Positions 19,382-51,840 of a DNA stretch of 64,000 nt are shown in pieces; within the stretch, counting starts at the first letter, position 1; each line of letters opens with the position of its first letter. The position numbers were made by a program, and so were the translations under genes. Under the pieces are notes generated by a model. That model was not told the DNA's origin. It ran no database searches and saw nothing but the letters and a program-made list of their open reading frames with translations. The DNA lies in the NCBI RefSeq assembly GCF_000739655.1, contig NZ_BATR01000010.1:62001-126000 (forward strand), in the 5' to 3' direction. Source of the DNA: Verrucomicrobium sp. BvORR106 (GTDB lineage: Bacteria > Verrucomicrobiota > Verrucomicrobiia > Verrucomicrobiales > Verrucomicrobiaceae).

Positions 19382-19463
19382 TCCGGTCGCGGAATACGTC
19401 AAAAAAACCACGAAAATTAGACTCGCTCCTAATAAGAGTATCTCCTAGCTTTCCGACTACTGC

Positions 19464-21234: not shown

Positions 21235-21272
21235 GGGATGGCCCTCCTTGTAAACGCCCCGCTCTTTATTTC

Positions 21273-23978: not shown

Positions 23979-24027
23979 GCGCCGCGCCAGCCGCGCCCCG
24001 TGAGCAGTTCAAGGAACTCACTTCCTC

Positions 24028-25338: not shown

Positions 25339-25407
25339 TATCCAGATCGATTGCCGATTGCCGGTCTGCCGTTTAAAATTGAACCCCTACACCTCCTCGT
25401 ACCTACG

Positions 25408-25839: not shown

Positions 25840-25878
25840 TCCTCCAGGAGCTCAGCCTTCCACCCACCGCTGCTCCTG

Positions 25879-27709: not shown

Positions 27710-27792
27710 CCCGGGCTCACCCGTATTTTCCACAAAAACACTGGAACTTTGGGCCTCAGCAACGGACAGTTGGAGGCCTATTCCCCCGTGGC

Positions 27793-29997: not shown

Positions 29998-32900
29998 ATG
30001 GTTATGACACGCTTCCATACTTCAGCTAAAATCGGGATCGCTGTGGCCTTGGGGATGGCCGCTTATGATGGGCACGCTGCCACTGATTACAATAACGATG
30101 GGTATGACGACGTCTGGCAGCAACGCCATGGCATCACAGTTTCCTCATACCCCCTCACCAGCGACTACGATGGTGATGGTGTTACCAATCAGGCGGAAAG
30201 CGTCGCGGGTACGGATCCGAAGAACTCGCTGGATGTCCTGGCGGTGACCAATATTTCGGTTTCAGGGACCAACATCGTGGTCTCCACCAAGACCCAGACG
30301 GGCAAGCGCTATAAGCTACAGAGCAGCAGCGCCCCCAACGGTCCCACCTGGACGGATGAAGGCAGCCCGCTGACCGGCAACGGCACCGTGCAGAGCTTCA
30401 CGGTGGCGATGGGGTCCGGCACCGCCCCCAAGTTCTACCGGGTGCAGGCGGAGGACCAGGACACAGATGGTGACGGCATCTCCGACTGGGCTGAGGGGCT
30501 CATGGGGACCAATGCCACCCTGGCCAACTCGCCCAACAATGCGTCCGGCGGTGTCGCCTCCGACAGCGAAACCCTGCGCAGCCTGATGTCGATCACCACC
30601 AGCGTGGTCACCGCCAGCGCCTATGAGAAAGAAGCCACCACCGCGCGCGTGCGGCTGACCCGCTCCTACGGCACGATGCCACTGACCGTGTCCTACACCA
30701 CGGCAGGCAACACGGACACCCTCAAAGGCTCCGCCGCCGCGGGTGACTACACGTTGAAGGACTCTGCCAATGTGGCCATCAGCACCTCCTTCACCATCCC
30801 GGCCGCTGCCACCCAGTATGATGTGCAGATCGCCCCGGTGCTGGATACGGCCAATGAAGTACCGGAAATGCTGCGCCTCACCTTCCGCCGGGTGACAGGC
30901 AGTGTGACCACCCAGCTGGGGAACACCCAAGCGGTCCACATCCGGGATGCCACAAACACCACGGCCAACCGCAAGCTCTTCGTCGCCTATCTGGGCCGTG
31001 AAGGGGGCGCAGTCACCACCGCCACCGGTGTGGCCACCCTGCTGCTTAACGGGGACAACACTTCCGCCGAAGTGAACTCCACCTTCAACAACCTGACCTC
31101 CCTCCAGAGCGCCTCCCACCTGCATGCCGCCCCCGCTGGCACGCCGCAGGCCAGTGGCCCCATCATTGAGAGCCTCGAACTCGGTCAGGTGACGGCCCAC
31201 GTGTACCCCATCGCCGCAGAATCAGTGGCGCTCTGGAACACGGATCAGGCCACGCTGGACAACCTCTACAACGGGTACATTTACATCAACGTTCACACGG
31301 CCAACTACGGCAGTGGTGAAATTCGAGGTAACTACGCCCTCGCCAACGGATCCGTCACCCCGCCCCCGGCGCCTGCGGCACCACCCACCTACGGCAGCAC
31401 GGAGTTCCCGAACCTGGCCGCCAGTGGCGTGAACAACAACCCGGCGCTGGATCGTGACATCGCCCGCTTCCTCACCCAGGCCAGCTACGGGCCCACGACG
31501 GAAAGCATCCAGGAGGTGAAGGATCTCATCGCCGCCAATGGCAACAATGCCATCAACGGCTACACGGCCTGGATCAACAAGCAGATCGATCTGGGCCAGA
31601 CACCGTCGCCCTCCCTGACGACGCTGGTGCAGGCCGCTGATGTGGAGGAGTTCATTATCCGCAACAACAAGCCCGTCACCTACGGCAACGATCCGCAGTT
31701 CGGTGGCAACTCCACCCAATGGAACGGTACCACCCGCGCTTGGGACGCCAGCAGCATCTGGAACAACAACTACCCCTTCCAGAACAACCGCCGCCGGGAA
31801 TGGTGGACGCTGGTGCTACAGAGCAAGGACCAGCTCCGTCAGCGCTTGGCCCTTGCCCTGAATGAGATCGTCGTGATCTCTGAAAACGACGGCACGGTTT
31901 CCACCTACCACTACGGGGCGTCCAACTACTGGGACATGCTGGCGCAAAACGCCTTCGGCAAGTACCGCACCATCCTGGAGAACGTGACCTACAGCCCGAT
32001 GATGGGCATCTACCTGAGCCACCTGAAGAACCAGAAGGCGAACGGCCAGATCAGCCCGGATGAGAACTATGCGCGTGAAATCATGCAGCTCTTCTCCATC
32101 GGTCTGGTACTGCGCCACCAGGACGGCAGCCTCCAGTTGAACACGAGCGGCCTGCCCGTCTCCACCTACGACCAGACGGACATCACGGAACTGGCCCGCG
32201 TCATGACGGGGCTCAGCTTTGGCAAGCGCAACGCCACCGTGGTGGGTGCTCCCACCTACCCGACCGCCACCAACCAGGCGATCGGTGCCGTGGAAGACAA
32301 CACGAACTTCTTCCAGGGCGGCGGCCACCGCTTCTGGCAGGCCTCCTGGGTCAATCCCATGAAGATGTTCGACGCCTACCATGACTTTACCGCGAAGACA
32401 CTCTTCGCCGGCAAAGTGGGTGCCACCACCATCCCGGCCCGGACCAACAACACCACGCCGGAGTCTGAAGGGAATGCGGATGTGATCGATGCGCTCAACG
32501 TGCTGGCCGGCAACCCTGCCAGCAGCACCTACAACGGCCACCCGAACACCCCGGTCTTCATCAGCCGCCTGCTCATTCAGCGGTTTACCACCTCGAACCC
32601 CAGCGCCGGCTACCTCTACCGCGTCACGCAGAAGTACAAGGACACCAACGGCAACCTGGGTGAGGTGATCAAAACCATCCTGCTGGACTACGAAGCCCGC
32701 AGCCTCACCAACGCGGATTCCGTGGTGGCGTTCGGCAAGGCCAAGGAGCCGCTCCTGCACTTCACCGCGATGATTCGCGCCGTGAAGAGCTACACCGGCT
32801 CCCCGCTGGCCACCCTGACCACGATGCCAGTGACCTTCACCGCCACGGAGTCGCCGGTCACCACCGCCTACCCGTCCACAGAGCTGGCCAAGTTCCCGAC

Positions 32901-33672
32901 CGGTGCCGTGCGGTTCCGCTTCTTCGACACCCAGTCGTCCGTCACCCAGTCCCCGCAGCGCGCTCCTAGCGTGTTCAACTGGTTCCTGCCGGACTACGTG
33001 ATGCCCGGACCGCTGGCCTCCGCTGGCCTCTTCGCCCCTGAACTGCAGGTTGCGACGGAGTCCAACGTGGTGAACGTCGTCAACTCGCACTACAACATCC
33101 TCTTCACCTCGGTGCCGCCGACCGTGAAAGCGGGTCGCGGACTGGATGACTACCTGAACCTCGCCTCCTACCGCAGCGCAGCCGGGGTGCAGCTCACGGT
33201 GCCAGCCTACGCGGTGTCCTCAGGGTACTTCAGCGCGAACACCTTCGATCCTGCCGGTGCCACCACCCAGCCTGGGGACATCAACAACCAGGTGGACAAC
33301 CTGATTCCGAAATTCGACGACCTGATCACCCTGTACACCAACACCTACACCACCACGCTCGCTGCCCAGTATGCGCCTGCCGCGGTCCCGGCCACCCCGG
33401 GCACCACGCAGAAGCAGGCCGCCCATGCCGAGGCGGTGAAGGTGGTGCTGGACCAGTGCGATCTGCTCTTCTCCTCCGGCTACCTGAAGGCGAAGTTCGG
33501 CAGCGCCCCCGCTCCTAACGTCCGCCAGTCCATCATTGACGGCGTCAACCTCATCGCGGCCAACAATCGGCACACGACGGATCCGACGAACTTCACCAAT
33601 GATGTCCGCACCCGGGTGCGCAACCTCCTCTACCTGGCAGTCAGCGCCCCGCAGGCCATCGTTCTCAAGTGA
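29998..33672 (+). CDS. Exported DUF1800 protein with Calx-beta-like and CHRD domains (module copy 1)
   Basis: 1224 residues. Order: signal peptide (about 1-28); TSP3-type calcium motifs (SDYDGDGVTNQAES near 55, QDTDGDGISDWAE near 155); Calx-beta-like domain (about 200-318); CHRD domain (about 323-450, with ASHLHAAP and YINVHTANYGSGEIRGNYAL); DUF1800 (about 486-1224, with FLTQASYGPT, RREWWTLVLQSKDQLRQRLA and PDENYAREIMQLFSIGL). DUF1800 genes almost always pair with DUF1501 genes, as here; the biochemical role is not established. It is followed 57 bases later by the DUF1501 gene. A second ATG two codons in is an alternative start. Confidence 0.93.
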   Translation: MVMTRFHTSAKIGIAVALGMAAYDGHAATDYNNDGYDDVWQQRHGITVSSYPLTSDYDGDGVTNQAESVAGTDPKNSLDVLAVTNISVSGTNIVVSTKTQTGKRYKLQSSSAPNGPTWTDEGSPLTGNGTVQSFTVAMGSGTAPKFYRVQAEDQDTDGDGISDWAEGLMGTNATLANSPNNASGGVASDSETLRSLMSITTSVVTASAYEKEATTARVRLTRSYGTMPLTVSYTTAGNTDTLKGSAAAGDYTLKDSANVAISTSFTIPAAATQYDVQIAPVLDTANEVPEMLRLTFRRVTGSVTTQLGNTQAVHIRDATNTTANRKLFVAYLGREGGAVTTATGVATLLLNGDNTSAEVNSTFNNLTSLQSASHLHAAPAGTPQASGPIIESLELGQVTAHVYPIAAESVALWNTDQATLDNLYNGYIYINVHTANYGSGEIRGNYALANGSVTPPPAPAAPPTYGSTEFPNLAASGVNNNPALDRDIARFLTQASYGPTTESIQEVKDLIAANGNNAINGYTAWINKQIDLGQTPSPSLTTLVQAADVEEFIIRNNKPVTYGNDPQFGGNSTQWNGTTRAWDASSIWNNNYPFQNNRRREWWTLVLQSKDQLRQRLALALNEIVVISENDGTVSTYHYGASNYWDMLAQNAFGKYRTILENVTYSPMMGIYLSHLKNQKANGQISPDENYAREIMQLFSIGLVLRHQDGSLQLNTSGLPVSTYDQTDITELARVMTGLSFGKRNATVVGAPTYPTATNQAIGAVEDNTNFFQGGGHRFWQASWVNPMKMFDAYHDFTAKTLFAGKVGATTIPARTNNTTPESEGNADVIDALNVLAGNPASSTYNGHPNTPVFISRLLIQRFTTSNPSAGYLYRVTQKYKDTNGNLGEVIKTILLDYEARSLTNADSVVAFGKAKEPLLHFTAMIRAVKSYTGSPLATLTTMPVTFTATESPVTTAYPSTELAKFPTGAVRFRFFDTQSSVTQSPQRAPSVFNWFLPDYVMPGPLASAGLFAPELQVATESNVVNVVNSHYNILFTSVPPTVKAGRGLDDYLNLASYRSAAGVQLTVPAYAVSSGYFSANTFDPAGATTQPGDINNQVDNLIPKFDDLITLYTNTYTTTLAAQYAPAAVPATPGTTQKQAAHAEAVKVVLDQCDLLFSSGYLKAKFGSAPAPNVRQSIIDGVNLIAANNRHTTDPTNFTNDVRTRVRNLLYLAVSAPQAIVLK

Positions 33673-33729
33673 TCGAGTACCAAATGGTGTTGTTTCAATT
33701 ATCCTCAAACCTTTTCAAAGCTTCCAAAC

Positions 33730-35346
33730 ATGAATCTTCTGTTTCGTCGCAAAAATGAGCCCAGCCGCCGCCAGTTCCTCGTCAAGACGGGCTGCTCCGC
33801 CATGGGCATCACCAGCGTGGTGAACACGCTGGCCCACCTCAAGCTCATGCAGGGGGCGCTCAATGCGCAATCCTCCGGCGGCGGCTACAAGGCCCTGGTC
33901 TGCGTCTTCCTCAACGGAGGCAACGACTCCAACAACATGCTGATGCCCTTCACAGGCACCGCACGCACGGACTATGAAGCGGGACGCGGGGTGCTCACCA
34001 TCCCCACGGCCAATGCCAACGCTGCGCTGAATGCGCTCCAGATCAATGCCACCAACGTCGCCGAGAGCGATCCCCTGGGCGGCTATCTGGGCACCTTCGG
34101 CGTACATCCCAAGTTCAACCATGTGAAGACCATGTTCGACACCGGGGAACTGGCCTTCGTGTCCAACGTGGGCACCCTCACCCAGCCCGGTGTGACACGA
34201 GCCAACTACTCCACGGCCTCCAAGCCGCCGCAGTTGTTCTCACACTCCGACCAGCAGGTGCAGTGGCAGAGTTCCATCCCGGACAAGCCCTTCACGAGTG
34301 GTTGGGGTGGCCGTATTGCGGACCTGCTGGACCCGATCCACAATCCAAGCACGGGGAACGCCTCCATGTCGGTCTCCATTTCCGGCGTGAACAGTTTCCA
34401 GGTCAGCCCCACGGGTGTGGTGGCCCCCTATGTGATGACGAGCAGCGGGGTGGTGAGCTTCGGAGGTTACGGCACGAACTACGCGAGCGCCGTGAACAAC
34501 CCGAGCCTCCTCTTCCAGGCCGCCAACTACAAGACCGGTGAGCAGGGCCGACGCCTGCAGGCCTTTGAGAACATCCTCCAGATGACTCATGCCAGCCTGA
34601 TCGAAAATGCCTACAACGGTGTGGTCATGAATGCCCGCGTCACGGAAGGCATGGTGGGCACGGCCCTCCAGACCACGGCTGGCTCCACCGCCGGCACCAG
34701 CACGTTGGACACGGTCTTCAACGATGCGTTCGTGGGTTCAGGGTTTAACGCCAACAACGACTTCACCAACCAGATGAAGCTCGTGGCCCGCCTCATCGCC
34801 GGCCGGTCCTCCCTCGCCAACACCCGCCAGATCTTCTTCGTGCAACAGGGCGGCTTCGACACCCACACGACGCAGATCCCGGCTGGCAGCAACACGGGCG
34901 GCCATACCGGTCTGATGAACAACCTCAATTGCACGCTGAAAGGCTTCCGCGATGCCCTCACCTCCATGGGTGTGTTTGACAACGTGGTCACCTTCACCGC
35001 CTCCGACTTCACCCGCACGTTCACGGCGAACAAAGGCGACTCCTCTGCCGGCAGCGACCATGCCTGGGGCGGCCACGCCATCGTCATGGGCGGTGCAGTC
35101 AAGGGTCAGCGGGTGTACGGAAAGTTCCCCGTGCTCAAGCTCGGCGCCGCCACGAACAGCATCGACTCCACCGGCGCCAGTGGCCGCTGGATCCCGAGTT
35201 CCAGTGTGGACCAGTACGCCTCCGTGCTGGCCAAGTGGCTGGGTGTCGGCGATGCCCAGCTCGCGAACATCTTCCCGAACCTGAGCCGGTTTAACAGCCC
35301 CTACAGCACGGCGGCCAACCTCGACTTCCTGGACTTCAACGTCTGA
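33730..35346 (+). CDS. Tat-exported DUF1501 protein (module copy 1)
   Basis: 538 residues. A twin-arginine motif SRRQFLVK at about 12-20, followed by a hydrophobic stretch, predicts Tat export. DUF1501 is placed in the alkaline phosphatase/sulfatase superfamily; the expected metal-site motifs are visible: LNGGNDSNN (about 61), GGFDTH (about 374), SDFTRT (about 426) and GSDHAWGGH (about 442). Substrate unknown. It sits between the DUF1800 gene and a strong terminator, with the pseudopilin-tail gene just beyond. Confidence 0.93.
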   Translation: MNLLFRRKNEPSRRQFLVKTGCSAMGITSVVNTLAHLKLMQGALNAQSSGGGYKALVCVFLNGGNDSNNMLMPFTGTARTDYEAGRGVLTIPTANANAALNALQINATNVAESDPLGGYLGTFGVHPKFNHVKTMFDTGELAFVSNVGTLTQPGVTRANYSTASKPPQLFSHSDQQVQWQSSIPDKPFTSGWGGRIADLLDPIHNPSTGNASMSVSISGVNSFQVSPTGVVAPYVMTSSGVVSFGGYGTNYASAVNNPSLLFQAANYKTGEQGRRLQAFENILQMTHASLIENAYNGVVMNARVTEGMVGTALQTTAGSTAGTSTLDTVFNDAFVGSGFNANNDFTNQMKLVARLIAGRSSLANTRQIFFVQQGGFDTHTTQIPAGSNTGGHTGLMNNLNCTLKGFRDALTSMGVFDNVVTFTASDFTRTFTANKGDSSAGSDHAWGGHAIVMGGAVKGQRVYGKFPVLKLGAATNSIDSTGASGRWIPSSSVDQYASVLAKWLGVGDAQLANIFPNLSRFNSPYSTAANLDFLDFNV

Positions 35347-35362
35347 GATTTCTGAACTCTTC

Positions 35363-35405
35363 AAGGCTCCGGCAAACAAAGGTTGCCGGAGCCTTTTCTT
35401 TTCTT
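35363..35405 (+). terminator. Rho-independent terminator after DUF1501 (copy 1)
   Basis: A perfect 13-bp stem, aaggctccggcaa (35363-35375) with ttgccggagcctt (35383-35395), a 7-base loop, then a T-rich run. It lies 17 bases after the DUF1501 stop. The next gene therefore probably needs readthrough or its own promoter. Confidence 0.9.
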
Positions 35406-35418
35406 TCTACTAGCTGCC

Positions 35419-35946
35419 ATGTCCTCCCCTCAAAAATCGCGGAGCACGCTTTTACTAACCCTCGCGGGCATCGGCGTCGCTACGGCGGTGCTGGTGTGGG
35501 TGATGCGCACATCTGAAGATGCGCCTGCCTCCCACACCTCCAGCAACCCGACCGCGGAAGCCCCGAAGCCGGCCCAGCCCGTCGTGGAACTGGGGCCCGT
35601 CACTGTCCATCAGTCCGCCCCTGAACTGGCCGCCCAGCTCACCCGGAATGATCTGGACTCCATGGCCCGCATTGAAGCAGTAAACCAGGTCCTCTATGTG
35701 TATCGGCAGGGATTTGGCGGCAATCCCTCCGGCCAGAATGAAGACATCGTGGCCGCGATTCTCGGTGAAAACGAAAAGCGCACCGCCTTGCTTCCCAAGG
35801 ACTGCCCGGCCATCCAGGGCGGGAAGCTGGTGGACGAATGGGGCACCCCCTACTGGTTCCACTCCATCACTGCAAAGGTCATGGAGATCCGCTCCGCCGG
35901 ACCTGATCGCGATCTCTTCACCAATGATGACGTCTTCGTCCAGTAG
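35419..35946 (+). CDS. Membrane-anchored protein with a pseudopilin-like tail (module copy 1)
   Basis: 175 residues from the ATG at 35419. One N-terminal membrane helix (LLLTLAGIGVATAVLVWVM), a Pro/Ala linker, then a domain ending DEWGTPYWFHSITAK and IRSAGPDRDLFTNDD. This tail copies the layout of GspG C-termini (D-x-W-G...Y then GPDG...TDDD), but the protein lacks the prepilin G/FTLxE processing site. Paralogues follow or precede the other two DUF1501 genes in the window. Probably a periplasmic, calcium-binding accessory of the module; function unknown. Confidence 0.85.
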   Translation: MSSPQKSRSTLLLTLAGIGVATAVLVWVMRTSEDAPASHTSSNPTAEAPKPAQPVVELGPVTVHQSAPELAAQLTRNDLDSMARIEAVNQVLYVYRQGFGGNPSGQNEDIVAAILGENEKRTALLPKDCPAIQGGKLVDEWGTPYWFHSITAKVMEIRSAGPDRDLFTNDDVFVQ

Positions 35947-35956
35947 CAGCGTGTCG

Positions 35957-38065
35957 ATGCTCTTTGCACGTCTCAAGCTGACCCCGGCCATTCTCTGCTG
36001 GGGGGCAGGTCTGCTCGTCTCCCCTGCTGCCGAGCCCCCTCCCGCCTGGCGCTGTCTCTCCGCCATGGCGTGGCAGCGGGAGCAGGAGTTTCAAAAACCC
36101 GCCAATGAAGAGCAGGCCTTTCGCAACGGCCCGTTCGATCTGCCGGTGATCCCTGATCCCGGTCCGCGCGCGGCTTTTCTGCCTTGGGCCGCCTCCGGCG
36201 TCTCTGCGGAAGTGAAGGCGCGCCTCGTGGAGGGCGTACGGCACCTCCATGCGCTGGACGACACGGCGGCAGAGCGTTGTTTCCGCGATGCCGCGCGGCT
36301 GGATGCGAAATGCGCCGCCGCCTGGCTGGGGCTCGCCATTGCCAATGAGAAGCTGCCCTCCCGTGCCCTCTATTTCCTGGAACAAGGAGCCGCCGCGGTG
36401 GAGGGCAGCCCGGAGGCGGCCTGGTACGATCTCTACCGCGCCTTTTTCCAGACTGTGCAGTCTCGTGATCTTTCAGATAGGCTCCTCACGCTGGCCGATG
36501 GCATTGAAGCCACGCAGCAGAAGGGCAAGGCTCTGCCAGGAGCCCTGGCGATGGCACTGCGCTACCGCATGCTCGCCTCTTATGTCTCTGGGCTGCCGAT
36601 GAAAAATGTGGAGTCAGCCGATGCCCAGTTGCTAACCTGGACCAAGCAACCTGGGGGCGATATCCTGCTGCCCTACACCGTGCTCCTGTGGACCAAGACG
36701 GATCCCGCCCGCGCCTCAGCACGGGTGGAGGCGCTGGTCCAGAAATGGCCGCAGCCGGCCATGCAGCGGCTTGCCGCCGACCCGTTGCTTGCAGCCGGGA
36801 ATCTCCGCGGGGCGATGAGCCATCTTGAGGTCGCCTATCAGGCGAAGGAACCGTACGAAGCTCTGGCGCTGGAGACGCCATCGCAGCTCCAACAACGGTG
36901 GGACCGAGGAGCCGCTCTGGCCTGGACGCTCTATCACGCAGGAGAGTGTGTTCCTGCACTGGACGCCGCCACCCGTCTCCTCAACCAGGCTCGTAAACCC
37001 GGCTTCACCGGCCTGGAGGCTGTGGATGACGATCCATCTGGCATCTACTTGGAAGGCGTCAAACTACGGGCCCAGCTCCTGATGGCCACTGGCGATTGGG
37101 CGGGTCTGGCGGCATGGATGCAGGAAATCACCATCCAGTCGGACGGGCTGGTGCAGAAGCTGCACAGCCAGTACTTCAGCATGCTCGCCGCCGCCGGTTC
37201 TGGCCAGCGGGAGGCTCTGGTCAAGCTGCGCCCGTCTTTGAAGCAGACAGCCGATCTCGTGCAGGCCACCCCCTATCTCAACCGCCACGGCCCCCTTGCG
37301 ATACGCATGGTTCGCGGGGCCGATGCTTTCGCAGATTTGTGCCAGGGCCGGGTGTCCCCGTTCTTGAAGGATGCGGTGGACGTGCCTGCCGTGGTGCTGG
37401 CACCGAAGGTGGCTGCCGCCGGGGCCAAAGACGGTGCCATTGCCATGCTGGAGGAGGCACTGGGGAAACAACCCGGCTCCAAGCCCGTACTGGCAGCCCT
37501 GGAGAGCCTCAAGACGTCGGGTGCGGCACAGACACCTGCCGAGCGAGTCGACGCGCCAGCGACCGCTGGAAGTGCTGTGACAGCGACGCTAGCACCGATG
37601 GCTCCCGCTCTCTCCCTGCCTGACAAGAACGGCTCCGTCGTGGATCTGACGGCCTACCGTGGTCGGCCTGTGTTGGTCATCTTCTTCCTCGGCGGTGGCT
37701 GCCCCCATTGTGTGGAGCAGTTGCAGAAGTTCCGGCCCCATGTGCCGTCCTATCATCTCGCAGGCATTTCGTTGCTCACCGTCAGCACCGATCCCGTGGC
37801 CGACCTGGCGTTGACGCTGGGAGGGAAGTCCGAGCTGGATCCTGATCTTCCGTTTCAGATCCTTTCTGACTCCGGCCTGAGCACCTTCAAGGCGTGGAAG
37901 TGCCATGATGATTTCCTGAACAAGCCCATGCACGGCACCTTCCTGCTGGATGGCGAAGGGCGGGTGCTATGGAGCGACATCAGCCACGACCCGTACGTGC
38001 AGGCGGGTTATCTGCTGGGTGAGTGCCGGCGGTTGTTGAAGGTGGGTGGCGGGCAGGGTAGTTAA
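35957..38065 (+). CDS. Exported TPR-like protein with a C-terminal thioredoxin-fold (AhpC/TlpA) domain
   Basis: 702 residues from the ATG at 35957; a GTG at 35951 is also possible, and the frame extends upstream inside the previous gene. A signal peptide ends near VSPAAEP. Residues about 90-540 are helical and Ala-rich like TPR/SEL1 arrays (LHALDDTAAERCFRDAARLD). The C-terminal ~150 residues are an AhpC/TSA-TlpA-type domain with SLPDKNGSVVDLTAYRGRPV and a CPHC motif (GGGCPHCVEQ, about 580). CPHC predicts thiol-disulfide exchange in the periplasm. It begins 10 bases after the pseudopilin-tail gene and is probably co-transcribed. Copies 2 and 3 of the module lack it. Confidence 0.88.
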   Translation: MLFARLKLTPAILCWGAGLLVSPAAEPPPAWRCLSAMAWQREQEFQKPANEEQAFRNGPFDLPVIPDPGPRAAFLPWAASGVSAEVKARLVEGVRHLHALDDTAAERCFRDAARLDAKCAAAWLGLAIANEKLPSRALYFLEQGAAAVEGSPEAAWYDLYRAFFQTVQSRDLSDRLLTLADGIEATQQKGKALPGALAMALRYRMLASYVSGLPMKNVESADAQLLTWTKQPGGDILLPYTVLLWTKTDPARASARVEALVQKWPQPAMQRLAADPLLAAGNLRGAMSHLEVAYQAKEPYEALALETPSQLQQRWDRGAALAWTLYHAGECVPALDAATRLLNQARKPGFTGLEAVDDDPSGIYLEGVKLRAQLLMATGDWAGLAAWMQEITIQSDGLVQKLHSQYFSMLAAAGSGQREALVKLRPSLKQTADLVQATPYLNRHGPLAIRMVRGADAFADLCQGRVSPFLKDAVDVPAVVLAPKVAAAGAKDGAIAMLEEALGKQPGSKPVLAALESLKTSGAAQTPAERVDAPATAGSAVTATLAPMAPALSLPDKNGSVVDLTAYRGRPVLVIFFLGGGCPHCVEQLQKFRPHVPSYHLAGISLLTVSTDPVADLALTLGGKSELDPDLPFQILSDSGLSTFKAWKCHDDFLNKPMHGTFLLDGEGRVLWSDISHDPYVQAGYLLGECRRLLKVGGGQGS

Positions 38066-38613: not shown

Positions 38614-39150
38614 CTACTCCTTCACATCCGGCACCACATCATCTGCCGTGAACAACTCCCGATCCGGCCCTGCAGAGCGGACCTCCATGTCCTTGCTGGT
38701 GACGGAGTGGAACCAATAAGGGGTGCCCCATTCATCCACGAGCTCGCCTTTGACAATGGCGGGGCAGTCTTTGGGGAGGAGGGCGGCGCCTTTTTCGTTC
38801 TCGCCGAGCAGGGCGTTGACCACCAGTTCGTTGTGCCCGGTGGGGATGCCACCCAGCACCTGGCGGTACAAGTAGATCACTTTTTCCACATACTGGATCC
38901 GCTCCTCAGCGGGCTGACCGGGCTGGCAGATCAGATTGGAAAGTTCCGCGGCGGACTCATGCAAGACCACCGGAGGAGGCTGAGGCAGCACGGGGGCTTT
39001 TACCGTGGGGCTTGAAGGAGCGGGCCCCGTCTTGGACGGTCCAGCCCCGTCTTGCCTGGTGATGTACCAGATGGCGACCGCCGAGGCGGCCACCACCAGC
39101 ACCGCGATGACCGGCAAGACGCGCCCACGGGAAGGAGGAGGAGACGACAT
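38614..39150 (-). CDS. Membrane-anchored protein with a pseudopilin-like tail (module copy 2)
   Basis: 178 residues. One N-terminal helix (VLPVIAVLVVAASAVAIWYI), a Pro-rich linker and the tail DEWGTPYWFHSVTSK and VRSAGPDRELFTADD. It is closely similar to the copy 1 protein, including LLGENEK..ALLPKDCPAI. It lies 96 bases after the DUF1501 stop on the same strand. No prepilin processing site. Confidence 0.85.
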   Translation of the reverse strand: MSSPPPSRGRVLPVIAVLVVAASAVAIWYITRQDGAGPSKTGPAPSSPTVKAPVLPQPPPVVLHESAAELSNLICQPGQPAEERIQYVEKVIYLYRQVLGGIPTGHNELVVNALLGENEKGAALLPKDCPAIVKGELVDEWGTPYWFHSVTSKDMEVRSAGPDRELFTADDVVPDVKE

Positions 39151-39246
39151 GAGATTCAGGAAATGACAGCAATCACCGGCCGGCCATCGTCACGCCCTCA
39201 GGGCGGACGGTGGCCGGAATCTCCAGCAAGATGACACAGACCCGGC

Positions 39247-40866: not shown

Positions 40867-40956
40867 GGAAGAAACAGGTTGGAATGTGAAGACTGGAATG
40901 GGACATCGGGACCCGCCGTCCGGATAGAAGCCGGGCGGCGGGTCATTCCGGTTATT

Positions 40957-45192: not shown

Positions 45193-48100
45193 ATGATATC
45201 CCGTACCCTAAGGCGGCATCTCGCCGCATGGATGGCCCCTGCCCTGTCGGCGGCCTTTGTCATCACCACCCAGGCAGCTCCCAAGTATGAGAGCGGCGTG
45301 GTCAACAACGCCCAGGCCAATGCCACCACGTGGCACACGGTCACCTTCACTACTCCGTTCTCCGCTCCGCCCGTCGTGGTGCTGGGAGCGCCAACGCAGA
45401 CGGATACGCAGGCCATCACCACCCGGGTGAGGAATGTCACGGCGACCAGCTTCCAGTACCAGCTGGACGAGTGGGACTATCTGGACGGCGTGCATGGTGC
45501 GGAAGCCGTACAATACCTCGCCCTCGAGCCGGGGGTGCACACCATCGGCGGCATCACGTGGCAGGCAGGTCGCAGTTCCAGCATCACCAAGTCCGCCTCG
45601 ACGGTGAACTTCACCTCTGCCTTCGGCGCCGCTCCGGTGGTGCTGGCGCAGGTGGAGAGCGCGGTCAACGCCAAGGCGCTCACCTCCCGGGTTCGGCTGG
45701 TGACTACCTCGAACTTTGAGCTGAAGCTCATCACCCAGGAGTCGGACACGGCAGCCGTGTCCGGGGAATCGGTGGGCTGGATCGCCGTGGCGACCGGCAC
45801 GGGCACCGTAGATGGTGCCACCTTCCAGTCGGCTCGCACAGGCACCACGGTCACCCAGGCCTGGACCGCGCAGCTTTTCACCGGGACCCACCGGCAGCCG
45901 CTGTTCTTTGCCCAAGCCCAGACGGTGAACGGAGCAGATCCCTTCACCATCCGCCGGCGCAATCTGAGCACCACCGGGGTGGAGATCTTCCTGGAGGAAG
46001 AACAGTCCGCCGATGCGGAAGTGAATCACGTGGCGGAGGACGTGGGCTACCTCGTCTTTGCCGAGAGCACCGGGGAACTGCGCGCCAAACTCGATCTCGT
46101 GGAACTGGTGCAGAACCAGAGCAGCGCGACGACGTGGCATGCGGAGACCTTTGCCCGCAGCTACACCAATCCTGTGGTGGTCTTTGGCCCCCTCACCCAG
46201 AACGGCGCTGACCCGGTCCGCGTGCGGGTGCGCAACGTCACCAGCACCGGCTTTGAGTGGCAGCAGGATGAGTGGGACTCCCTCGATGGCAGCCACGGGT
46301 CAGAGACCGTGCACTATCTCGTCGCCGAAGAAGGCTCCTACCAGATCGGCGGTCTGCGCTGGCAGTTCGGCCGGTCCACAGGCGTCACCCATACCGCAGC
46401 CACCAAGACGTTTGCCGAGGCCTTCCCGGTAGCGCCAGTGGTCTTTGGCCAGGTGGTCACCACCAATGAGGCCAGCGCGGTGTCCCCCAGGGTCAGCGCT
46501 GTCACCACCACCGGCTTCAGCCTTCGTCTTCAGGAGGAAGAAGCCGCGAACCAGACTCACACAGGTGAGACCGTGCACTACGCCGCTGTCGAGAAGGGCA
46601 GCGGTCGCATCGTCACCAGCCAGTTCGTTGTCGAAGCTGGCAGCTCTGGCGCCAACGTCACGAATGCGTTCAAGACCGTGAACTTTGCCCGCAAGCTGGC
46701 GGACCCGTTTGTCCTGGGTGAGGCCCAGACCCTCAATGAGGCCGACCCCATCGTGGTGCGCCAGCGCAACCTGGGGCCCACCAAGGTGGACCTGCGGGTT
46801 CAAGATGAAACCTCCGCCAACAGCGAGACCACTCATGCTGCCGAGAACGTGGCTTACCTCGTGGTCTCCGGCTCGCTGGACCTGGATGAAGACGGCCTGC
46901 CCGATGCCTGGGAAACTTCCGTGGGCCTGAACCCGGCAGACCCGAATGACGCCGGACTCGACGGCGACGGTGACGGCATCACCAATCTCAATGAATATGC
47001 CTATAGCACCAGCCCGAGCACCTTTGACTCCGGCGGCACGGTCACCGTGGCCGCAAGCGTTTCCGACGGTTATGAGAAAGAAGGCATCCCGGCGCGATTC
47101 ACCGTCAGCCGCACGGGTGGAACCGTGCCCGTAACGGTGTCCTACACCCTCTCCGGCCGCGCCACTGCCCCCGGCACCAGCGGTGCCGACTACGCCACCA
47201 ATAACAACAGCGGTGGCACGCTCAATGGCTCTGTGACCATCGGCTTCAACGCCACCTCTGCGGATGTGGTGATCCAGCCTGTGGTGGATACGGTGAACGA
47301 GTACCCGGAAACGGTCGTGCTCACCCTAAGCAGTGGCAGCACCTACACGGTGGGTTCCGCCTCCAACAGCACCGCCCAGGTGAATGACGCCACGGCTACC
47401 ACGGCCAATGAAGAGCTCTTCGTCGCCTTCCTGGGCCGCCAGGGCTCCGCCCAGACCTATGCGTCCGGCTTTGCCACCATCCACCTGAATGGCCCCAAGA
47501 ACGCCGCCCGGGTGAACCTGAGCTTCAGCGGTTTGACCTCGAACCAGACCAATGCGTATCTCCGCTACGGCGTCGCCTCCGGTGTCGGACCCGAGCTGCG
47601 CCCCACCCTGCCCATCGGCCAAGTGGTGAACGAGCCCTGGACCATCATTCCCGTGGGGGCGCTCACCGGCCAGAACATCGTGGATTCGCTCTACCAGGTC
47701 GGTGGAAAATGGGTGTACCTCAACATCGGTACAGGATCCTACCCTGCCGGTGAGATCACCGGGATCGCAGGTCGCCAGACGGGCTCCAGCACCTTCACCC
47801 CGCCACCCGCACCGCCCGCCATCACCGCGCTCACGGGAGATGCGCTGAAGCAGGATGTGGCCCGCTTCCTCACCCAGGCCACCTTTGGCCCCACCAAGGC
47901 AGACATCGACGCGCTCGTGACCCAGATCAACACGACGCACGCCGGCAACCGGATCGCGTCGTACAACGCCTGGATCGACGCCCAATACGCCCTGGATGCG
48001 ACCAAGCTGCTGGCCTACACCGAAGCCGCTGACGCCCACGAATGGACCCTGCGCGGGGCCAGCCCGAGCAACTTCGTCAACAACAACGAGCCCCGGCACC

Positions 48101-49653
48101 ACAACCGGCGTCGCGGCTGGTGGACCCTCTCCGCCAAGGCCCACGACCAGCTCCGCCAACGCGTTGGATTCGCCCTCAGCGAAATCCTGGTGACCTCTGA
48201 TGAACTCAACATCCTGCGCACCCGCCACTATGGCCTGGCCAACTACTACGACCTCCTGGCGGCGGCGGCGGACGGCAACTATCGCACGCTGCTGGAGAAC
48301 GTGAGCAAGAGCCCCGTCCTGGGCAAGTACCTCAGCCACCTGCAGAACCAGAAAGCCATCCTCGATGGCAACGGCAACGTGCTGGTGAGCCCGGATGAGA
48401 ACTACGCCCGTGAAATCCTGCAACTGTTCTCCATCGGCCTGGTGCATCGTCACCCCGATGGCAGCCTCAAGCTGGGCCCAGACGGCCTCCCCATCCAGAC
48501 CTACAACAATGACGACATCACGAACCTGGCCCGGGTCTTTACCGGCTGGAGCTTCAGCAAACGTCATGGAGCAGCAGCGGATGGCTATCCGGTGGTGGAC
48601 AACACCAACTTCAACCAGGGGAACGGCCCGGCCTACTTCCAGGCCTCCTGGACGAATCCGCTGAAGAACTTCGTCACCCACCATGACACAGGCGCGAAGA
48701 CGGTGCTCGGCAGCAACATCGCCTCCGGTCTCAACGGACAGCAGGACCTGACGGCGGCGCTGAACATCATCTTCGCCCACCCCAATGTCGGCCCCTTCAT
48801 CAGCCATCTGCTCATCCAGCGGCTTGTCACCTCGAACCCCAGCGCCGGCTACATCCACCGCGTGACACAGAAGTTCGAGGACAACGGCTCCGGTGTGCGC
48901 GGCGACTTGAAGGCCGTCATCAAGGCAGTCCTGCTGGACTACGAGGCCCGCAGCCTGGACGTGGTGAACAATATCGGCTACGGCAAGCCCAAGGAACCCA
49001 TCGTCCGCTACGTGCAGCTGCTGCGCGCGCTCGGAGCCTGGTCTGACCTGCCGCTGAGCACCCTCTCCAGCCACGGTTATCCCGCGGGCCAGCTCAACAA
49101 CTTCCCCTCCGGGACGACGCTGCTGCGCTATCCGAACACGGACGCCCGCCTGGCCCAGACTCCGCAGAGCGCACCGAGCGTGTTCAACTGGTTCCTCCCC
49201 GGTTACAATCCCGGCGGTGCCACGGGTGCCGCCGGCCTGGTGGCCCCCGAGCTGCAGCTGAGCACGGAGACGAGCGTGGTTCAAGCCATCAACTACCACT
49301 ACACCGTCGCCCAGGTGAACAACGGCCAGGGGGTGGACGCCCTCTACGGAGCCACGGTTGCCCTGGACGACAACGTCCGGCTGGACCGCACCCCCTATGA
49401 GACGCTCTACGACGCGGAGATCACCGCCGGCAAAACCGTGCCCCAGGCCCTGGCCACCGTGCTGGACGCCCTGGATCTGGTGCTGACCTCCGGCAATCTC
49501 AAGGCCCGCTACGCCAGCGCCGCCGCGCCCAACCCACGCAGTGTCATCATCGACTCCGGGGCCTCCCTGGCCGCCGGCACCACCACCGCAGTGCGGGTGA
49601 AGGAGCTGCTCTACCTCATCGCCACCTCGCCGGAGTTCGTCATCCAGAAGTGA
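45193..49653 (+). CDS. Exported DUF1800 protein with lectin-like N-terminal repeats (module copy 3)
   Basis: 1486 residues. After the signal peptide, residues about 30-560 hold at least four related modules of about 105-130 aa with the theme 'ppVVvlg..tqng.dp..vRvrnvt.tgF', an acidic Glu-rich strand and 'H..E.VgYLav'. These resemble H-type lectin/discoidin-like domains. Then TSP3 calcium motifs (DLDEDGLPDAWE, about 562), Calx-beta-like (about 616-733), a CHRD-like domain (about 738-861) and DUF1800 (about 883-1486; FLTQATFGPT, RRGWWTLSAKAHDQLRQRVG, PDENYAREILQLFSIGL). It differs from copies 1 and 2 mainly by the lectin-like array. The DUF1501 gene starts 40 bases later. Confidence 0.92.
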   Translation: MISRTLRRHLAAWMAPALSAAFVITTQAAPKYESGVVNNAQANATTWHTVTFTTPFSAPPVVVLGAPTQTDTQAITTRVRNVTATSFQYQLDEWDYLDGVHGAEAVQYLALEPGVHTIGGITWQAGRSSSITKSASTVNFTSAFGAAPVVLAQVESAVNAKALTSRVRLVTTSNFELKLITQESDTAAVSGESVGWIAVATGTGTVDGATFQSARTGTTVTQAWTAQLFTGTHRQPLFFAQAQTVNGADPFTIRRRNLSTTGVEIFLEEEQSADAEVNHVAEDVGYLVFAESTGELRAKLDLVELVQNQSSATTWHAETFARSYTNPVVVFGPLTQNGADPVRVRVRNVTSTGFEWQQDEWDSLDGSHGSETVHYLVAEEGSYQIGGLRWQFGRSTGVTHTAATKTFAEAFPVAPVVFGQVVTTNEASAVSPRVSAVTTTGFSLRLQEEEAANQTHTGETVHYAAVEKGSGRIVTSQFVVEAGSSGANVTNAFKTVNFARKLADPFVLGEAQTLNEADPIVVRQRNLGPTKVDLRVQDETSANSETTHAAENVAYLVVSGSLDLDEDGLPDAWETSVGLNPADPNDAGLDGDGDGITNLNEYAYSTSPSTFDSGGTVTVAASVSDGYEKEGIPARFTVSRTGGTVPVTVSYTLSGRATAPGTSGADYATNNNSGGTLNGSVTIGFNATSADVVIQPVVDTVNEYPETVVLTLSSGSTYTVGSASNSTAQVNDATATTANEELFVAFLGRQGSAQTYASGFATIHLNGPKNAARVNLSFSGLTSNQTNAYLRYGVASGVGPELRPTLPIGQVVNEPWTIIPVGALTGQNIVDSLYQVGGKWVYLNIGTGSYPAGEITGIAGRQTGSSTFTPPPAPPAITALTGDALKQDVARFLTQATFGPTKADIDALVTQINTTHAGNRIASYNAWIDAQYALDATKLLAYTEAADAHEWTLRGASPSNFVNNNEPRHHNRRRGWWTLSAKAHDQLRQRVGFALSEILVTSDELNILRTRHYGLANYYDLLAAAADGNYRTLLENVSKSPVLGKYLSHLQNQKAILDGNGNVLVSPDENYAREILQLFSIGLVHRHPDGSLKLGPDGLPIQTYNNDDITNLARVFTGWSFSKRHGAAADGYPVVDNTNFNQGNGPAYFQASWTNPLKNFVTHHDTGAKTVLGSNIASGLNGQQDLTAALNIIFAHPNVGPFISHLLIQRLVTSNPSAGYIHRVTQKFEDNGSGVRGDLKAVIKAVLLDYEARSLDVVNNIGYGKPKEPIVRYVQLLRALGAWSDLPLSTLSSHGYPAGQLNNFPSGTTLLRYPNTDARLAQTPQSAPSVFNWFLPGYNPGGATGAAGLVAPELQLSTETSVVQAINYHYTVAQVNNGQGVDALYGATVALDDNVRLDRTPYETLYDAEITAGKTVPQALATVLDALDLVLTSGNLKARYASAAAPNPRSVIIDSGASLAAGTTTAVRVKELLYLIATSPEFVIQK

Positions 49654-49693
49654 CCCTCCTCAGAAAGTTACAACCTAGAACTTCTTTTGAACC

Positions 49694-51208
49694 ATGAAAA
49701 AGAATGATCGTGAATTGCTCGCCACCCGCCGCCGCTTTCTGCGCCAGTCCACCTGCTCGGCGCTGGGCATCACCGGCGTGGTGAACACCCTGGCGCACCT
49801 GCGCCTGGTGAACTCCGCCCTGGCCCAGGCCGCCCCCCTGCCGGATTACAAGGCCCTGGTGGTGATCTTCCTCTTCGGAGGCAATGACTCCAACAACCTG
49901 CTCATCCCGCAGAAGAACCATCCGGCCTATGCCGACTACAAGAGCGCCCGCGGAGTGCTGAAGATCCTGGACCCCACCGACAGCGCCTACGTGTCTGGAG
50001 ATCCTGCCTCCATCCCGCTCACCACCACGAGCGGCGACTATGGGGTGCACCCGTCCGCCCAGGGGCTGGCCACCTTGTTCAACACCGGCGAGCTGGCCTT
50101 CGTCTCCAATGTCGGCACGCTGCTGTATCCCACCACGCGAGCCCAGTTCCAGGCCGGTTCCGTGCCGCTGCCGCCGCAGCTCTTCTCCCACTCGGACCAG
50201 CAGGTGCAGTGGCAGAGCTCGGTGCCAGACCAGCCGTTCACCAGTGGCTGGGGCGGCCGCGTGGCAGACTTGCTGGCGGCGCAAAGCTACGCGCAGGGGC
50301 AGGTCTCCCTCTCCGTCAGCCTCGCCGGCATCAACAGCCTTCAGGTAGGCAACCAGGAGGTACAGTATGCCCTCACGCCAGACGGAGCAGTGCCTCTCAC
50401 CGGATACAGCGATGCCACCGGGCCCTATGGACTGGCGTTAAACACCAACGGCACGTACAAGAACTCGCTGCAAGGCAAGCGGCTCAAGGCGTTCGATGAC
50501 ATAACCCACTACACCTACCAGCATCTGCTGGAGGACTCCCATGCCGGAGTGGTGAAGCGCGCCCAGGCCAATGAAGGTCTCGTAGGTGCCGCCTTCACCG
50601 AGGCCGCCGCCTCCGGGGTGGACTTCGACACGCTCTTCACCAATGCCCAGACCACTCTGGGCGACCAACTCAAGGCCATTGCCAAGCTCATCGCCGGGCG
50701 CAACAGCCTGGGGAACCGCCGGCAGATCTTCTTTGCCAGCATTGGGGGCTTTGATACGCACCAAGACCAGCTCGATGCACAGGTGAACTTGGTCGGGGAG
50801 CTCAGCGGAGCCTTCAAGGCCTTCCGTGATACTCTGGTGGCGCTGGGTGTCTATGACAACGTGCTCTCGGTGACGCACTCCGACTTCACGCGCACGCTCA
50901 CCCCCAATGGTCAAGACCCGAACACCGCCGGCTCCGACCACGGCTGGGGCGGTCACCAGATCGTCTTTGGCGGTCCGGTGAATGGCGGCCAGGTCTACGG
51001 CACCTTCCCCAGCCTGAAGCTGGGGCAGGACCAGGATGCTGGCTCCAGCAACCGCGGTCGCTGGATACCCACCACCTCTGTGGACCAGTACGCGGCGGTG
51101 GCGGCGAACTGGCTGGGCGTCAGCAGCGGGGACCTGGGCACCATCTTCCCCAACATTGGTCGTTTCAATGATCCCTTCGCCGGCAGCGCCAACCTTGGAT
51201 TTGTATGA
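49694..51208 (+). CDS. Tat-exported DUF1501 protein (module copy 3)
   Basis: 504 residues. Twin-arginine signal TRRRFLRQSTCSALGITG with an Ala-rich cut region (NSALAQAA). Motifs FLFGGNDSNN, GGFDTHQDQ, SDFTRT and GSDHGWGGH are kept. More diverged from copies 1 and 2 than they are from each other. Its stop overlaps the start of the pseudopilin-tail gene by four bases (ATGA at 51205), which argues that the two are made together. Confidence 0.92.
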   Translation: MKKNDRELLATRRRFLRQSTCSALGITGVVNTLAHLRLVNSALAQAAPLPDYKALVVIFLFGGNDSNNLLIPQKNHPAYADYKSARGVLKILDPTDSAYVSGDPASIPLTTTSGDYGVHPSAQGLATLFNTGELAFVSNVGTLLYPTTRAQFQAGSVPLPPQLFSHSDQQVQWQSSVPDQPFTSGWGGRVADLLAAQSYAQGQVSLSVSLAGINSLQVGNQEVQYALTPDGAVPLTGYSDATGPYGLALNTNGTYKNSLQGKRLKAFDDITHYTYQHLLEDSHAGVVKRAQANEGLVGAAFTEAAASGVDFDTLFTNAQTTLGDQLKAIAKLIAGRNSLGNRRQIFFASIGGFDTHQDQLDAQVNLVGELSGAFKAFRDTLVALGVYDNVLSVTHSDFTRTLTPNGQDPNTAGSDHGWGGHQIVFGGPVNGGQVYGTFPSLKLGQDQDAGSSNRGRWIPTTSVDQYAAVAANWLGVSSGDLGTIFPNIGRFNDPFAGSANLGFV

Positions 51209-51840
51209 GTCACGCAGCAACATCCTTAACTTTGTCCGGAAGCGGTCGGGTGGCCGTGGCAGGAGCGTTCGGTCTGGCACTGCTGGGCGGAGTGGCCACC
51301 ATCTGGCTGCTCACCCGGCATGTGCCGGACGGTTCGGCTCAAACGAGCGTGTTTCGCGACACGTTCACGCCACGGCCCACTGCATCGCCTCTCCCTGCGC
51401 CTCCGCTTCCAGCAACACCTGTGCTGGCCAAAGCCGCGCCTCATATCGATGGCCGCATCCTTGCCACGCGCAAGGACGGCCTGGTGGTGGTGCCGGACCT
51501 CGCCGCCGAAGCCGCAGAGCTCAACGCCAAGGAGTCCACCATCCAAAGGGATCTCGAGATCCTCGAAACTCTGGTCGGTTTCTTCCGGAGCTTTCAGTAC
51601 GGGGAGAACCCCTTCGGAGGGGAGAACGATGAAATCGTGGCCCAGCTCTCTGGTCGCAACCCCAGGAATCTGGCGGTGATCCTTCCAGAGAGCCCGTCGA
51701 TCGACAGCCGCGGACGGCTGCTGGACCGGTGGGGCACCCCCTTCCACTTCCACCCGGTGACCCATGAGGTTCTGGAAATCACTTCCGCAGGGCCCGATGG
51801 AAAACTCTGGACGGCCGATGACGTGAAGAGCGTGCCGTGA
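51205..51840 (+). CDS. Membrane-anchored protein with a pseudopilin-like tail (module copy 3)
   Basis: 211 residues. N-terminal helix (VAVAGAFGLALLGGVATIWLL), Pro/Ala linker, then a helical segment and the tail DRWGTPFHFHPVTHEVLEIT and AGPDGKLWTADD. It retains GENPFGGENDEIVAQLSGRN, matching the copy 1 and 2 pattern (GGNPSGQNEDIVAAILGEN). Translationally coupled to DUF1501 through ATGA. No prepilin cleavage site. Confidence 0.85.
   Translation: MSHAATSLTLSGSGRVAVAGAFGLALLGGVATIWLLTRHVPDGSAQTSVFRDTFTPRPTASPLPAPPLPATPVLAKAAPHIDGRILATRKDGLVVVPDLAAEAAELNAKESTIQRDLEILETLVGFFRSFQYGENPFGGENDEIVAQLSGRNPRNLAVILPESPSIDSRGRLLDRWGTPFHFHPVTHEVLEITSAGPDGKLWTADDVKSVP

What the first reader, a model, noticed from the sequence alone, without database searches (positions are those of the whole stretch)
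29998..51840. Three-copy module: DUF1800, Tat-type DUF1501 and a pseudopilin-tail membrane protein
Each DUF1800/DUF1501 pair is accompanied by a small one-helix protein whose tail (D-x-WGTP-Y/F...AGPDxxxxTxDD) mimics GspG but lacks the prepilin site. The pairing of DUF1800 with DUF1501 is known; a constant third partner, in one case joined by ATGA (51205), is not something I know to be described. Three independent copies in 22 kb make chance unlikely.
Basis: partly seen in the sequence, partly recalled or inferred. Interest (0 to 1): 0.78.

Follow-up and report, generated by a model that had tools for sequence, protein, structure and literature searches.

The report
Tethered pseudopilin beside DUF1800–DUF1501 genes
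Many verrucomicrobial bacteria carry, directly after a pair of exported proteins of unknown function, a gene for a small membrane-tethered protein whose outer part is predicted to fold like the main filament protein of the type II secretion machine, which suggests a dedicated helper for exporting that pair.

Summary
Three DUF1800–DUF1501–third-protein sets lie at 29998–51840; copies 1 and 2 stem from a duplication, copy 3 and a fourth copy elsewhere in the genome are separate lineages. Members have an N-terminal hydrophobic helix, a mostly proline-rich linker and a tail that AlphaFold2 folds confidently; its best solved matches are GspG major pseudopilins. The prepilin cleavage site is absent, but the acidic loop (GspG's calcium site, recalled) is invariant. 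Most sets have no T2SS genes nearby. Best reading: a substrate-dedicated, membrane-tethered T2SS helper, working like LipB/CpaB chaperones but built from a pseudopilin head. Linkage and predicted fold are shown; secretion, binding and helper role are inferred. The papers searched do not describe it.

The parts
29998..33672 (+). DUF1800 protein, copy 1 (long type: TSP3 repeats, CHRD domain, C-terminal DUF1800 domain)
   Evidence: Pfam PF08811 E 5.7e-66, CHRD 1.1e-14, TSP3_bac 7.8e-7
33730..35346 (+). DUF1501 protein, copy 1, twin-arginine (Tat-type) N-terminus
   Evidence: PF07394 E 7.1e-26; RRQFL in the sequence
35419..35946 (+). third protein, copy 1: membrane helix, linker, pseudopilin-fold tail (an earlier TTG start at 35383 is possible)
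   Evidence: AlphaFold2 model and fold matches; no Pfam match
35957..38065 (+). TPR plus AhpC/TSA redoxin protein between copies 1 and 2; recurrent neighbour of the third gene in relatives
   Evidence: Pfam AhpC-TSA 9.9e-15; start; neighbours
38614..39150 (-). third protein, copy 2
   Evidence: T2SSG E 0.0021, 18.5 bits, below the 21-bit cut-off
39247..40866 (-). DUF1501 protein, copy 2
   Evidence: PF07394 E 3.3e-24
40957..44606 (-). DUF1800 protein, copy 2, read in two frames (883 aa and 344 aa); intact in two same-genus relatives
45193..49653 (+). DUF1800 protein, copy 3 (H-type lectin domains, CHRD, DUF1800)
   Evidence: Pfam H_lectin 1.5e-17, 3 stretches; CHRD 3.9e-5; DUF1800 1.8e-72
49694..51208 (+). 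DUF1501 protein, copy 3, Tat-type
   Evidence: PF07394 E 7.5e-28
51205..51840 (+). third protein, copy 3, start overlaps the DUF1501 stop (ATGA)
   Evidence: T2SSG E 0.017, 15.6 bits, below cut-off
15771..17591 (-). T2SS ATPase GspE
   Evidence: PF00437 E 2.7e-131
18257..21234 (+). T2SS GspK, GspL-like (PilN), GspM
   Evidence: T2SSK_1st 8.8e-15; PilN 1.0e-4 and T2SSM_b 3.3e-4, both just under their cut-offs
21159..25338 (+). T2SS secretin GspD and platform protein GspF (the GspD ORF as listed overlaps GspM at its start)
   Evidence: Secretin 4.2e-40; T2SSF 1.6e-45
25351..27709 (+). T2SS pseudopilins GspG, H, I, J
   Evidence: T2SSG 8.5e-24 for 25351-25839; N_methyl for G and J; prepilin motifs for all four; H, I and J named by position
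27793..28584 (+). unnamed protein of the T2SS cluster; its relatives lie between GspM and GspD in other genera, and a paralogue follows the fourth third-protein copy
   Evidence: no Pfam match

Best explanation
The third protein is a substrate-dedicated accessory factor of the type II secretion system. An N-terminal membrane helix and a flexible, mostly proline-rich linker tether a GspG-like pseudopilin head in the periplasm. It serves its operon partners, the Tat-exported DUF1501 protein and the DUF1800 protein with its lectin/CHRD/TSP3 modules: it holds or checks them after inner-membrane export and hands them to the T2SS, probably by letting its pseudopilin head dock on the pseudopilus or platform. 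It is unlikely to be a normal filament subunit, because the cleavage site and the unbroken helix into the head are missing. Shown: gene order, family conservation, helix/linker/head architecture, predicted pseudopilin fold, absence of a prepilin site, recurrent T2SS linkage. Inferred: that DUF1501/DUF1800 are T2SS substrates, that the head binds them or the T2SS, and the hand-over step.
For: DUF1501 just upstream: 64 of 67 (51 of 54 outside the genus) and 69 of 74 testable, where 'upstream' means same strand within about 1.5 kb; for the 46 genes measured, 44 lie within 100 bases, median 13.5, 12 overlapping, on start codons I chose. Fold: AlphaFold2 mean pLDDT 89.7, 96 or more in every block from residue 61 on; the four best Foldseek rows (three entries) are all GspG, E 2.2e-3 to 3.4e-2, the next row 4.5; VIA Z 7.5 to 6.0 for seven GspG/PulG/EpsG entries, other pilins and a pseudopilus model 4.8 to 3.3, best non-pilin 2.7. 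Profile comparison with GspG from the same phylum E 3.7e-6, probability 87%. Pfam T2SSG hits 20 of 43 members at E up to 1, best 2.6e-6. D163, D170 and D171 of the acidic loop identical in 43 of 43. T2SS cluster next to copy 1. Two or more T2SS genes beside the set in 7 of 63 and 9 of 80 loci, against 0 of 30 compact-pair loci and 0 of 9 long-pair loci without the third gene. In opitutal genomes GspG is the next same-strand gene; in L088 GspE, F, G and H follow the third gene on the same strand. A paralogue of a T2SS-cluster gene follows the fourth copy and its orthologues in two other genomes of the genus. Of 44 genomes with strong third-family matches all 44 have GspG (compared by hand).
Against: No experiment. 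Most sets are not beside T2SS genes in the stretches fetched: 56 of 63 and 71 of 80 have fewer than two recognised T2SS genes. The T2SS search models were built from the window and third-gene loci, which favours finding T2SS genes there; the window itself is the discovery locus and 64 kb long while other stretches are at most 20 kb; several positive loci share a genus. Counting any single T2SS gene the contrast shrinks: 11 of 63 and 11 of 80 against 2 of 30 and 1 of 9, and prepilin-like genes are not enriched at all (6 of 63 loci against 3 of 30). GspG is so common in the phylum (330 of 387 genomes) that genome co-occurrence says little. Seven fetched long-type DUF1800-DUF1501 pairs outside the own genome, and one in it, lack a recognisable third gene, so if the pair is secreted the helper is not always needed. 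Window copies 2 and 3 score below the Pfam T2SSG cut-off and copy 1 does not match. The VIA Z values lie under 8, where the tool warns that a match may mean only a common arrangement, although here they stand well above the unrelated rows.
Confidence: 0.5

Rival explanations
1. The third protein is an inner-membrane anchor or scaffold for a periplasmic DUF1501-DUF1800 complex that has nothing to do with type II secretion. The pseudopilin fold is only its ancestry, and T2SS neighbours are a by-product of cluster conservation.
For: Close operon partnership without T2SS neighbours at most loci; the pilin-type head lacks the features for filament entry.
Against: T2SS genes (two or more) recur beside the set in several genera of at least two orders and are absent from 39 comparison loci (see the caveats on that control). 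The two DUF1800 proteins scanned carry lectin, CHRD or TSP3 modules, which suggests a place outside the cell (inference).
Confidence: 0.22
2. The third protein is a machine part of the T2SS rather than a substrate helper: an uncleaved pseudopilin-like cap, primer or regulator of the pseudopilus, and DUF1501/DUF1800 sit in the operon as its main users or as surface parts of the machine.
For: GspG-like head with the invariant acidic loop; direct position before GspG in opitutal genomes.
Against: Several copies per genome (up to six matches), each read so far mostly with its own DUF1501/DUF1800 pair. Most genomes with GspG show no strong third-family match: 330 of 387 have GspG, 44 of 387 have strong third-family matches.
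Confidence: 0.15
3. A degenerate pseudopilin that hitch-hikes with the operon and has no function of its own.
For: No prepilin site.
Against: Ten invariant columns besides the start methionine across 43 members at 26-85% identity to copy 1; several of them (N107, G116, H148) are not conserved in GspG of the same phylum by the profile alignment; strong matches in several families of the phylum.
Confidence: 0.04

Closest known systems
GspG/PulG/EpsG, major pseudopilin of the T2SS (PF08334)
   Same: Predicted fold of the tail; D-x-W-G...Y/F and S-x-G-P-D...T-x-D-D loop; membrane helix at the N-terminus.
   Different: No prepilin cleavage site, no glutamate at the start of the helix, helix and head separated by a linker of median 38 residues, own signature PxGxN...LxGxN...FH; on the other side of a supported branch in the tree.
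Membrane-associated T2SS chaperones: LipB and CpaB (PMC4713064, abstract and section list read), foldase LipH (PMC13381987, passages read)
   Same: N-terminal transmembrane helix, flexible linker (LipH), periplasmic domain, gene adjacent to the exported partner.
   Different: The head is a pseudopilin fold here; dependence of secretion on it is untested; the partners are two proteins (DUF1501 and DUF1800), not a lipase or protease.
DUF1800-DUF1501 operons beside bacterial chitin synthase genes (PMC5122149, passages read)
   Same: The same two families paired, with a Tat signal on DUF1501.
   Different: No third pseudopilin-like gene is named in the passages read; the authors link the pair to chitin synthase, which was not looked for here.
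Mitochondrial GspG (PMC8134430, passages read)
   Same: Membrane helix followed by a pseudopilin domain.
   Different: It keeps the maturation features, including glutamate +5, and is treated as a filament subunit; the present family lacks them.

Membership tests
GspG major pseudopilin | Prepilin-type cleavage site with glutamate at +5 | tested here: not met
   1 of 46 regex hits in the first 40 residues, and that one lies at the end of the helix; E/D in the membrane 19-mer in 2 of 43, at its end
GspG major pseudopilin | Unbroken N-terminal helix running into the head | tested here: not met
   Model of copy 1: helix 9-31, then no helix until 67; linker median 38 residues, median 21% proline, 15% or more in 36 of 43
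GspG major pseudopilin | Pseudopilin fold of the head | tested here: met
   on one predicted model only
GspG major pseudopilin | Acidic C-terminal loop (calcium site, recalled) | tested here: met
   Sequence only: D163, D170, D171 in 43 of 43, T168 in 41 of 43; aligned with 3g20. Calcium binding not testable.
GspG major pseudopilin | Pfam T2SSG gathering score, 21 bits | tested here: not met
   Window copies: none, 18.5 and 15.6 bits
Membrane-associated T2SS chaperones (LipB/CpaB kind) | N-terminal transmembrane domain and periplasmic head | tested here: met
   Hydrophobic 17-mer near the N-terminus in 46 of 46, Kyte-Doolittle sums 31-61; N-terminus net positive in 36 of 43. The side of the membrane is inferred from this.
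Membrane-associated T2SS chaperones (LipB/CpaB kind) | Encoded next to the exported partner | tested here: met
   that the partner is T2SS-exported is not shown
[quoted passage not shown]
   Needs a mutant
Membrane-associated T2SS chaperones (LipB/CpaB kind) | Homology to a known foldase | tested here: inconclusive
   No foldase in the sequence or fold lists; absence from a list does not exclude it
DUF1501 and DUF1800 | Pfam gathering score | tested here: met
   DUF1501 in all three copies; DUF1800 in copies 1 and 3 and in both pieces of copy 2

The most novel reading that the evidence does not exclude
A pseudopilin head has been taken off the filament and put on a membrane leash to become a substrate-specific adaptor: it recognises one Tat-exported DUF1501 protein and its DUF1800 partner and plugs them onto the T2SS by pilin-type head contacts. 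It would be a class of secretion adaptors used across Verrucomicrobiota, with several paralogues per genome, each for its own partner pair.
Probability: 0.33. Interest if true: 0.82.

Novelty: new variant of a known kind. Interest (0 to 1): 0.62.

Why it matters
How the T2SS picks its substrates is, from general knowledge (recalled), still poorly understood. A gene that nearly always follows one exported pair and carries a GspG-like head would give a genetically addressable handle on that question. It also gives a mechanistic lead for DUF1501 and DUF1800, which Pfam still names as of unknown function; DUF1501 alone has 60 matches in this genome.

Tried and rejected
Rejected: that the third protein is an ordinary GspG. 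There is no cleavage site, the helix is broken from the head in the model, and the tree separates the two. Not counted: weak third-family matches in the phylum search. Of the 20 of 64 genomes with best E above 1e-20, 14 match only by profile positions from about 125 on, as ordinary GspG would; the other six may be divergent members (sorted by hand). Rejected: that the unnamed protein at 27793-28584 is a proven GspC. No Pfam match; only its place between GspM and GspD in relatives suggests it. Rejected: lipoprotein anchoring in general; a lipobox-like string occurs in 2 of 43, inside the hydrophobic stretch. Rejected on recheck: that copies 1 and 2 are sisters in the tree; they share a subclade only.

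Led nowhere: the DUF1800 domain models well (pLDDT 81.5, pTM 0.87), but Foldseek finds no solved look-alike (best E 1.7) and the profile search gives only weak rows (best E 0.016). A single DUF1501 sequence finds nothing in the PDB at E up to 1. Prepilin-like genes as a T2SS proxy did not separate third-gene loci from controls; multi-gene T2SS clusters did. The second structure job went to DUF1800, so DUF1501 has no model here.

Counting notes: 40 regions were picked by me from the listed best matches; they hold 42 third genes, 9 of them from two same-genus genomes. 20 more come from strong matches outside the order. 40 come from the DUF1800 matches; three of its matches were left out (two of them neighbouring pieces) besides those already held. 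The 67 genes are these 42 and 20, one found from the DUF1800 side (L155) and the 4 of the own genome. Some named loci repeat unnamed ones (L167 and L089, L242 and L109, L221 and L088), so the two samples overlap and must not be added. In one search six of 80 loci have too little sequence upstream to test; of the 74 others 64 have DUF1501 and DUF1800, 5 have DUF1501 with the contig start close behind, and 5 (L167, L180, L185, L188, L220) have no DUF1501 upstream; L185 has a DUF1800 gene just downstream instead. Two same-genus loci are masked upstream of DUF1501 and are untestable for DUF1800; L077 has DUF1501 but no DUF1800 upstream. Compact and long DUF1800 types were told apart by score against my own model of the long type. 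Of the 30 compact loci three (L126, L127, L132) end too close to DUF1501 to test, as do two further long-type loci (L151, L157).


Full report
What is there. The window is G000:C200:62001-126000 of an 8.69 Mb draft genome. A near relative of the third protein is in Verrucomicrobium sp. BvORR034 (85% identity), so the genus is probably Verrucomicrobium (inference). Copies 1 and 2 face each other around a TPR-redoxin gene and are 75% identical in DNA over 5333 aligned columns. Both are present in two same-genus genomes (L063, L066). In the tree of third proteins they share a subclade of ten rows (100/97), but copy 2 groups with genes of other genera (97/78), so the duplication may be older than the genus. 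Copy 3 belongs to another branch, as does a fourth third-protein gene on contig C199, which follows another DUF1800-DUF1501 pair. The DUF1800 gene of copy 2 is split by a frame change here and intact in the two same-genus genomes.

The third family. A profile of the four own-genome copies finds matches in 157 of 288 genomes of the order (E up to 1e-5); 16 of the 157 are weak (best E above 1e-20, my count). A 43-member profile finds strong matches (best E up to 1e-20) in 44 of 387 genomes of the phylum and weaker ones in 20 more, 14 of which match by the end of the tail alone, as ordinary GspG does (sorted by hand). A motif scan of one genome per species found 262 relatives; the 80 shown all have titles that name Verrucomicrobiota groups, one of them Kiritimatiellia and one, a lake-type bin, labelled Akkermansia muciniphila. 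All 46 members of the first sample have a hydrophobic stretch near the N-terminus. In 43 aligned members the linker has a median of 38 residues and 21% proline (15% or more in 36), and ten columns besides the start methionine are invariant.

Is it tied to DUF1501? Yes. Sixty of the 67 also have DUF1800 upstream in the same stretch. Of the other seven, the own C199 copy has its DUF1800 in a neighbouring stretch, two are masked there, one (L077) has DUF1501 only and three (L089, L094, L119) are orphans. The three orphan genomes do hold DUF1800 genes elsewhere. In named genomes 69 of 74 testable loci have DUF1501 upstream. Spacing is tight: of 46 genes measured, 44 lie within 100 bases of DUF1501, median 13.5, 12 overlapping. 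The reverse is weaker. Among stretches drawn from the DUF1800 matches of 145 phylum genomes, none of 30 compact-type loci shows the third gene (three of them end too close to test), and seven long-type pairs (L149, L152, L154, L156, L158, L159, L162) and one pair of the own genome lack it. DUF1501 is twin-arginine type in 98 of 108 genes by a strict pattern; at least five of the ten exceptions are cut or misread ends or carry a near-miss motif.

What it looks like. AlphaFold2 with the 43-row alignment gives mean pLDDT 89.7: a membrane helix at 9-31, a linker, and a head from about residue 62. Foldseek's first four rows in the PDB (three entries) are GspG/PulG/EpsG (E 2.2e-3 to 3.4e-2); the fifth is unrelated at E 4.5. 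VIA-align gives Z 7.5 to 6.0 for seven GspG-type entries, 4.8 for a pseudopilus model, 4.3 to 3.3 for type IV pilins and at most 2.7 for unrelated chains. Z under 8 alone would be weak, but the ranking and the sequence evidence agree: Pfam T2SSG in 20 of 43 members at E up to 1, best 2.6e-6, a profile comparison with phylum GspG at E 3.7e-6, and 3g20 as the top PDB sequence match at E 0.037, not significant by itself. The acidic loop SAGPDxxxxTxDD is the best conserved part: D163, D170 and D171 are the same in 43 of 43. Calcium stabilises T2SS pseudopilins (PMC5131608, passages read, citing Korotkov 2009, which I did not read); that this loop is the site is recalled. What makes a pseudopilin a filament subunit is missing: no prepilin site and no unbroken helix into the head. 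In a tree of 46 third proteins from the order and 14 GspG-type sequences the two groups lie on either side of a supported branch (100/98), though long branches meet there.

The neighbourhood. The finding's coordinates begin at 29998. Directly upstream, 15771-28584, lies a T2SS cluster: GspE, GspK, a PilN/GspL-like protein, GspM, GspD, GspF, GspG, H, I and J, then an unnamed protein whose relatives sit between GspM and GspD in L071, L072 and L088. A paralogue of it directly follows the fourth third-protein gene and its orthologues in two same-genus genomes. This control has limits: the T2SS models were built from the window and third-gene loci, the window is longer than the other stretches, several positives share a genus, and any single T2SS gene occurs in 11 of 63, 11 of 80, 2 of 30 and 1 of 9. 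Single prepilin-like genes are not enriched: 6 of 63 against 3 of 30. The strongest linkage is the order itself. In opitutal genomes by title, or in the same family handle, GspG follows the third gene on the same strand: L109, L110, L199, L218, L219, L230, L232, L233, L234, L237, L240 (L242 repeats L109), with further pseudopilins after it in L109 and L110. In L088 GspE, F, G and H follow it. All 44 genomes with strong third-family matches have GspG (compared by hand); because 330 of 387 have GspG, this is only consistent, not strong.

How it most likely works. T2SS substrates cross the inner membrane by Sec or Tat, and pseudopilus assembly is believed to push them out (PMC8134430, passages read). 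Some need a membrane-associated chaperone with an N-terminal transmembrane domain, encoded next to the substrate, whose disruption abolishes secretion of that substrate (PMC4713064, abstract read). The foldase LipH of P. aeruginosa has a membrane helix and a 41-residue linker with 11 prolines (PMC13381987, passages read). The third protein has this layout and this gene position, but a pseudopilin head. The best reading is therefore a dedicated, tethered T2SS helper for the DUF1501/DUF1800 pair, whose head could dock on the pseudopilus or platform. The docking is a guess; substrate status and binding are inferred.

Novelty. DUF1800-DUF1501 pairing and the Tat signal are published (PMC5122149, passages read), and DUF1501 has been cited as a conserved module in compartmentalised PVC species (PMC4960237, passage read). 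A 2026 paper on an Opitutales isolate reports 67 homologues of a pulG-like pseudopilin in one genome (PMC13274419, passages read); whether these relate to the third family was not tested. In the listings of searches, and in the passages read, I saw no description of the third family, of a T2SS link of the pair, or of an uncleaved GspG-like partner; the library holds only open-licence papers. I file it as a new variant of a known kind: it would work like a membrane-associated T2SS chaperone but is not shown to be one, and it is not a GspG because defining features fail.

Noticed in passing
window 40957-44606: DUF1800 copy 2 is split by one frame change; the relative's protein matches both pieces at 96-97% identity. 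It could be a real mutation or an assembly error.
   Followed up: partly
window 31438-33669 (DUF1800 domain of copy 1): The DUF1800 domain gives a confident mostly helical model (pTM 0.87) with no solved look-alike by Foldseek; its fold may be undescribed.
   Followed up: partly
window 28829-29878; L016 8564-9601: A protein of unknown family on the opposite strand beside copy 1 has relatives beside other DUF1800-DUF1501 pairs.
   Followed up: no
window 35957-38065: A TPR-redoxin protein is a recurrent neighbour of the third gene in several genera; a thiol step in maturation of the pair is conceivable.
   Followed up: no
window 53156-56893 and 60311-63193: The first has an inverse-autotransporter barrel and NosD-type repeats by Pfam; the second has a similar start by eye.
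   Followed up: no
whole genome G000: 60 DUF1501 matches in one genome, against 7 DUF1800 matches at 6 gene pairs.
   Followed up: no
genus g12: The listed genomes of this genus (2-3.5 Mb) show no third family, no DUF1800 and no GspG match; by size and family this may be Akkermansia (inference), although one bin titled Akkermansia muciniphila (L208) holds the third gene and may be mislabelled.
   Followed up: no
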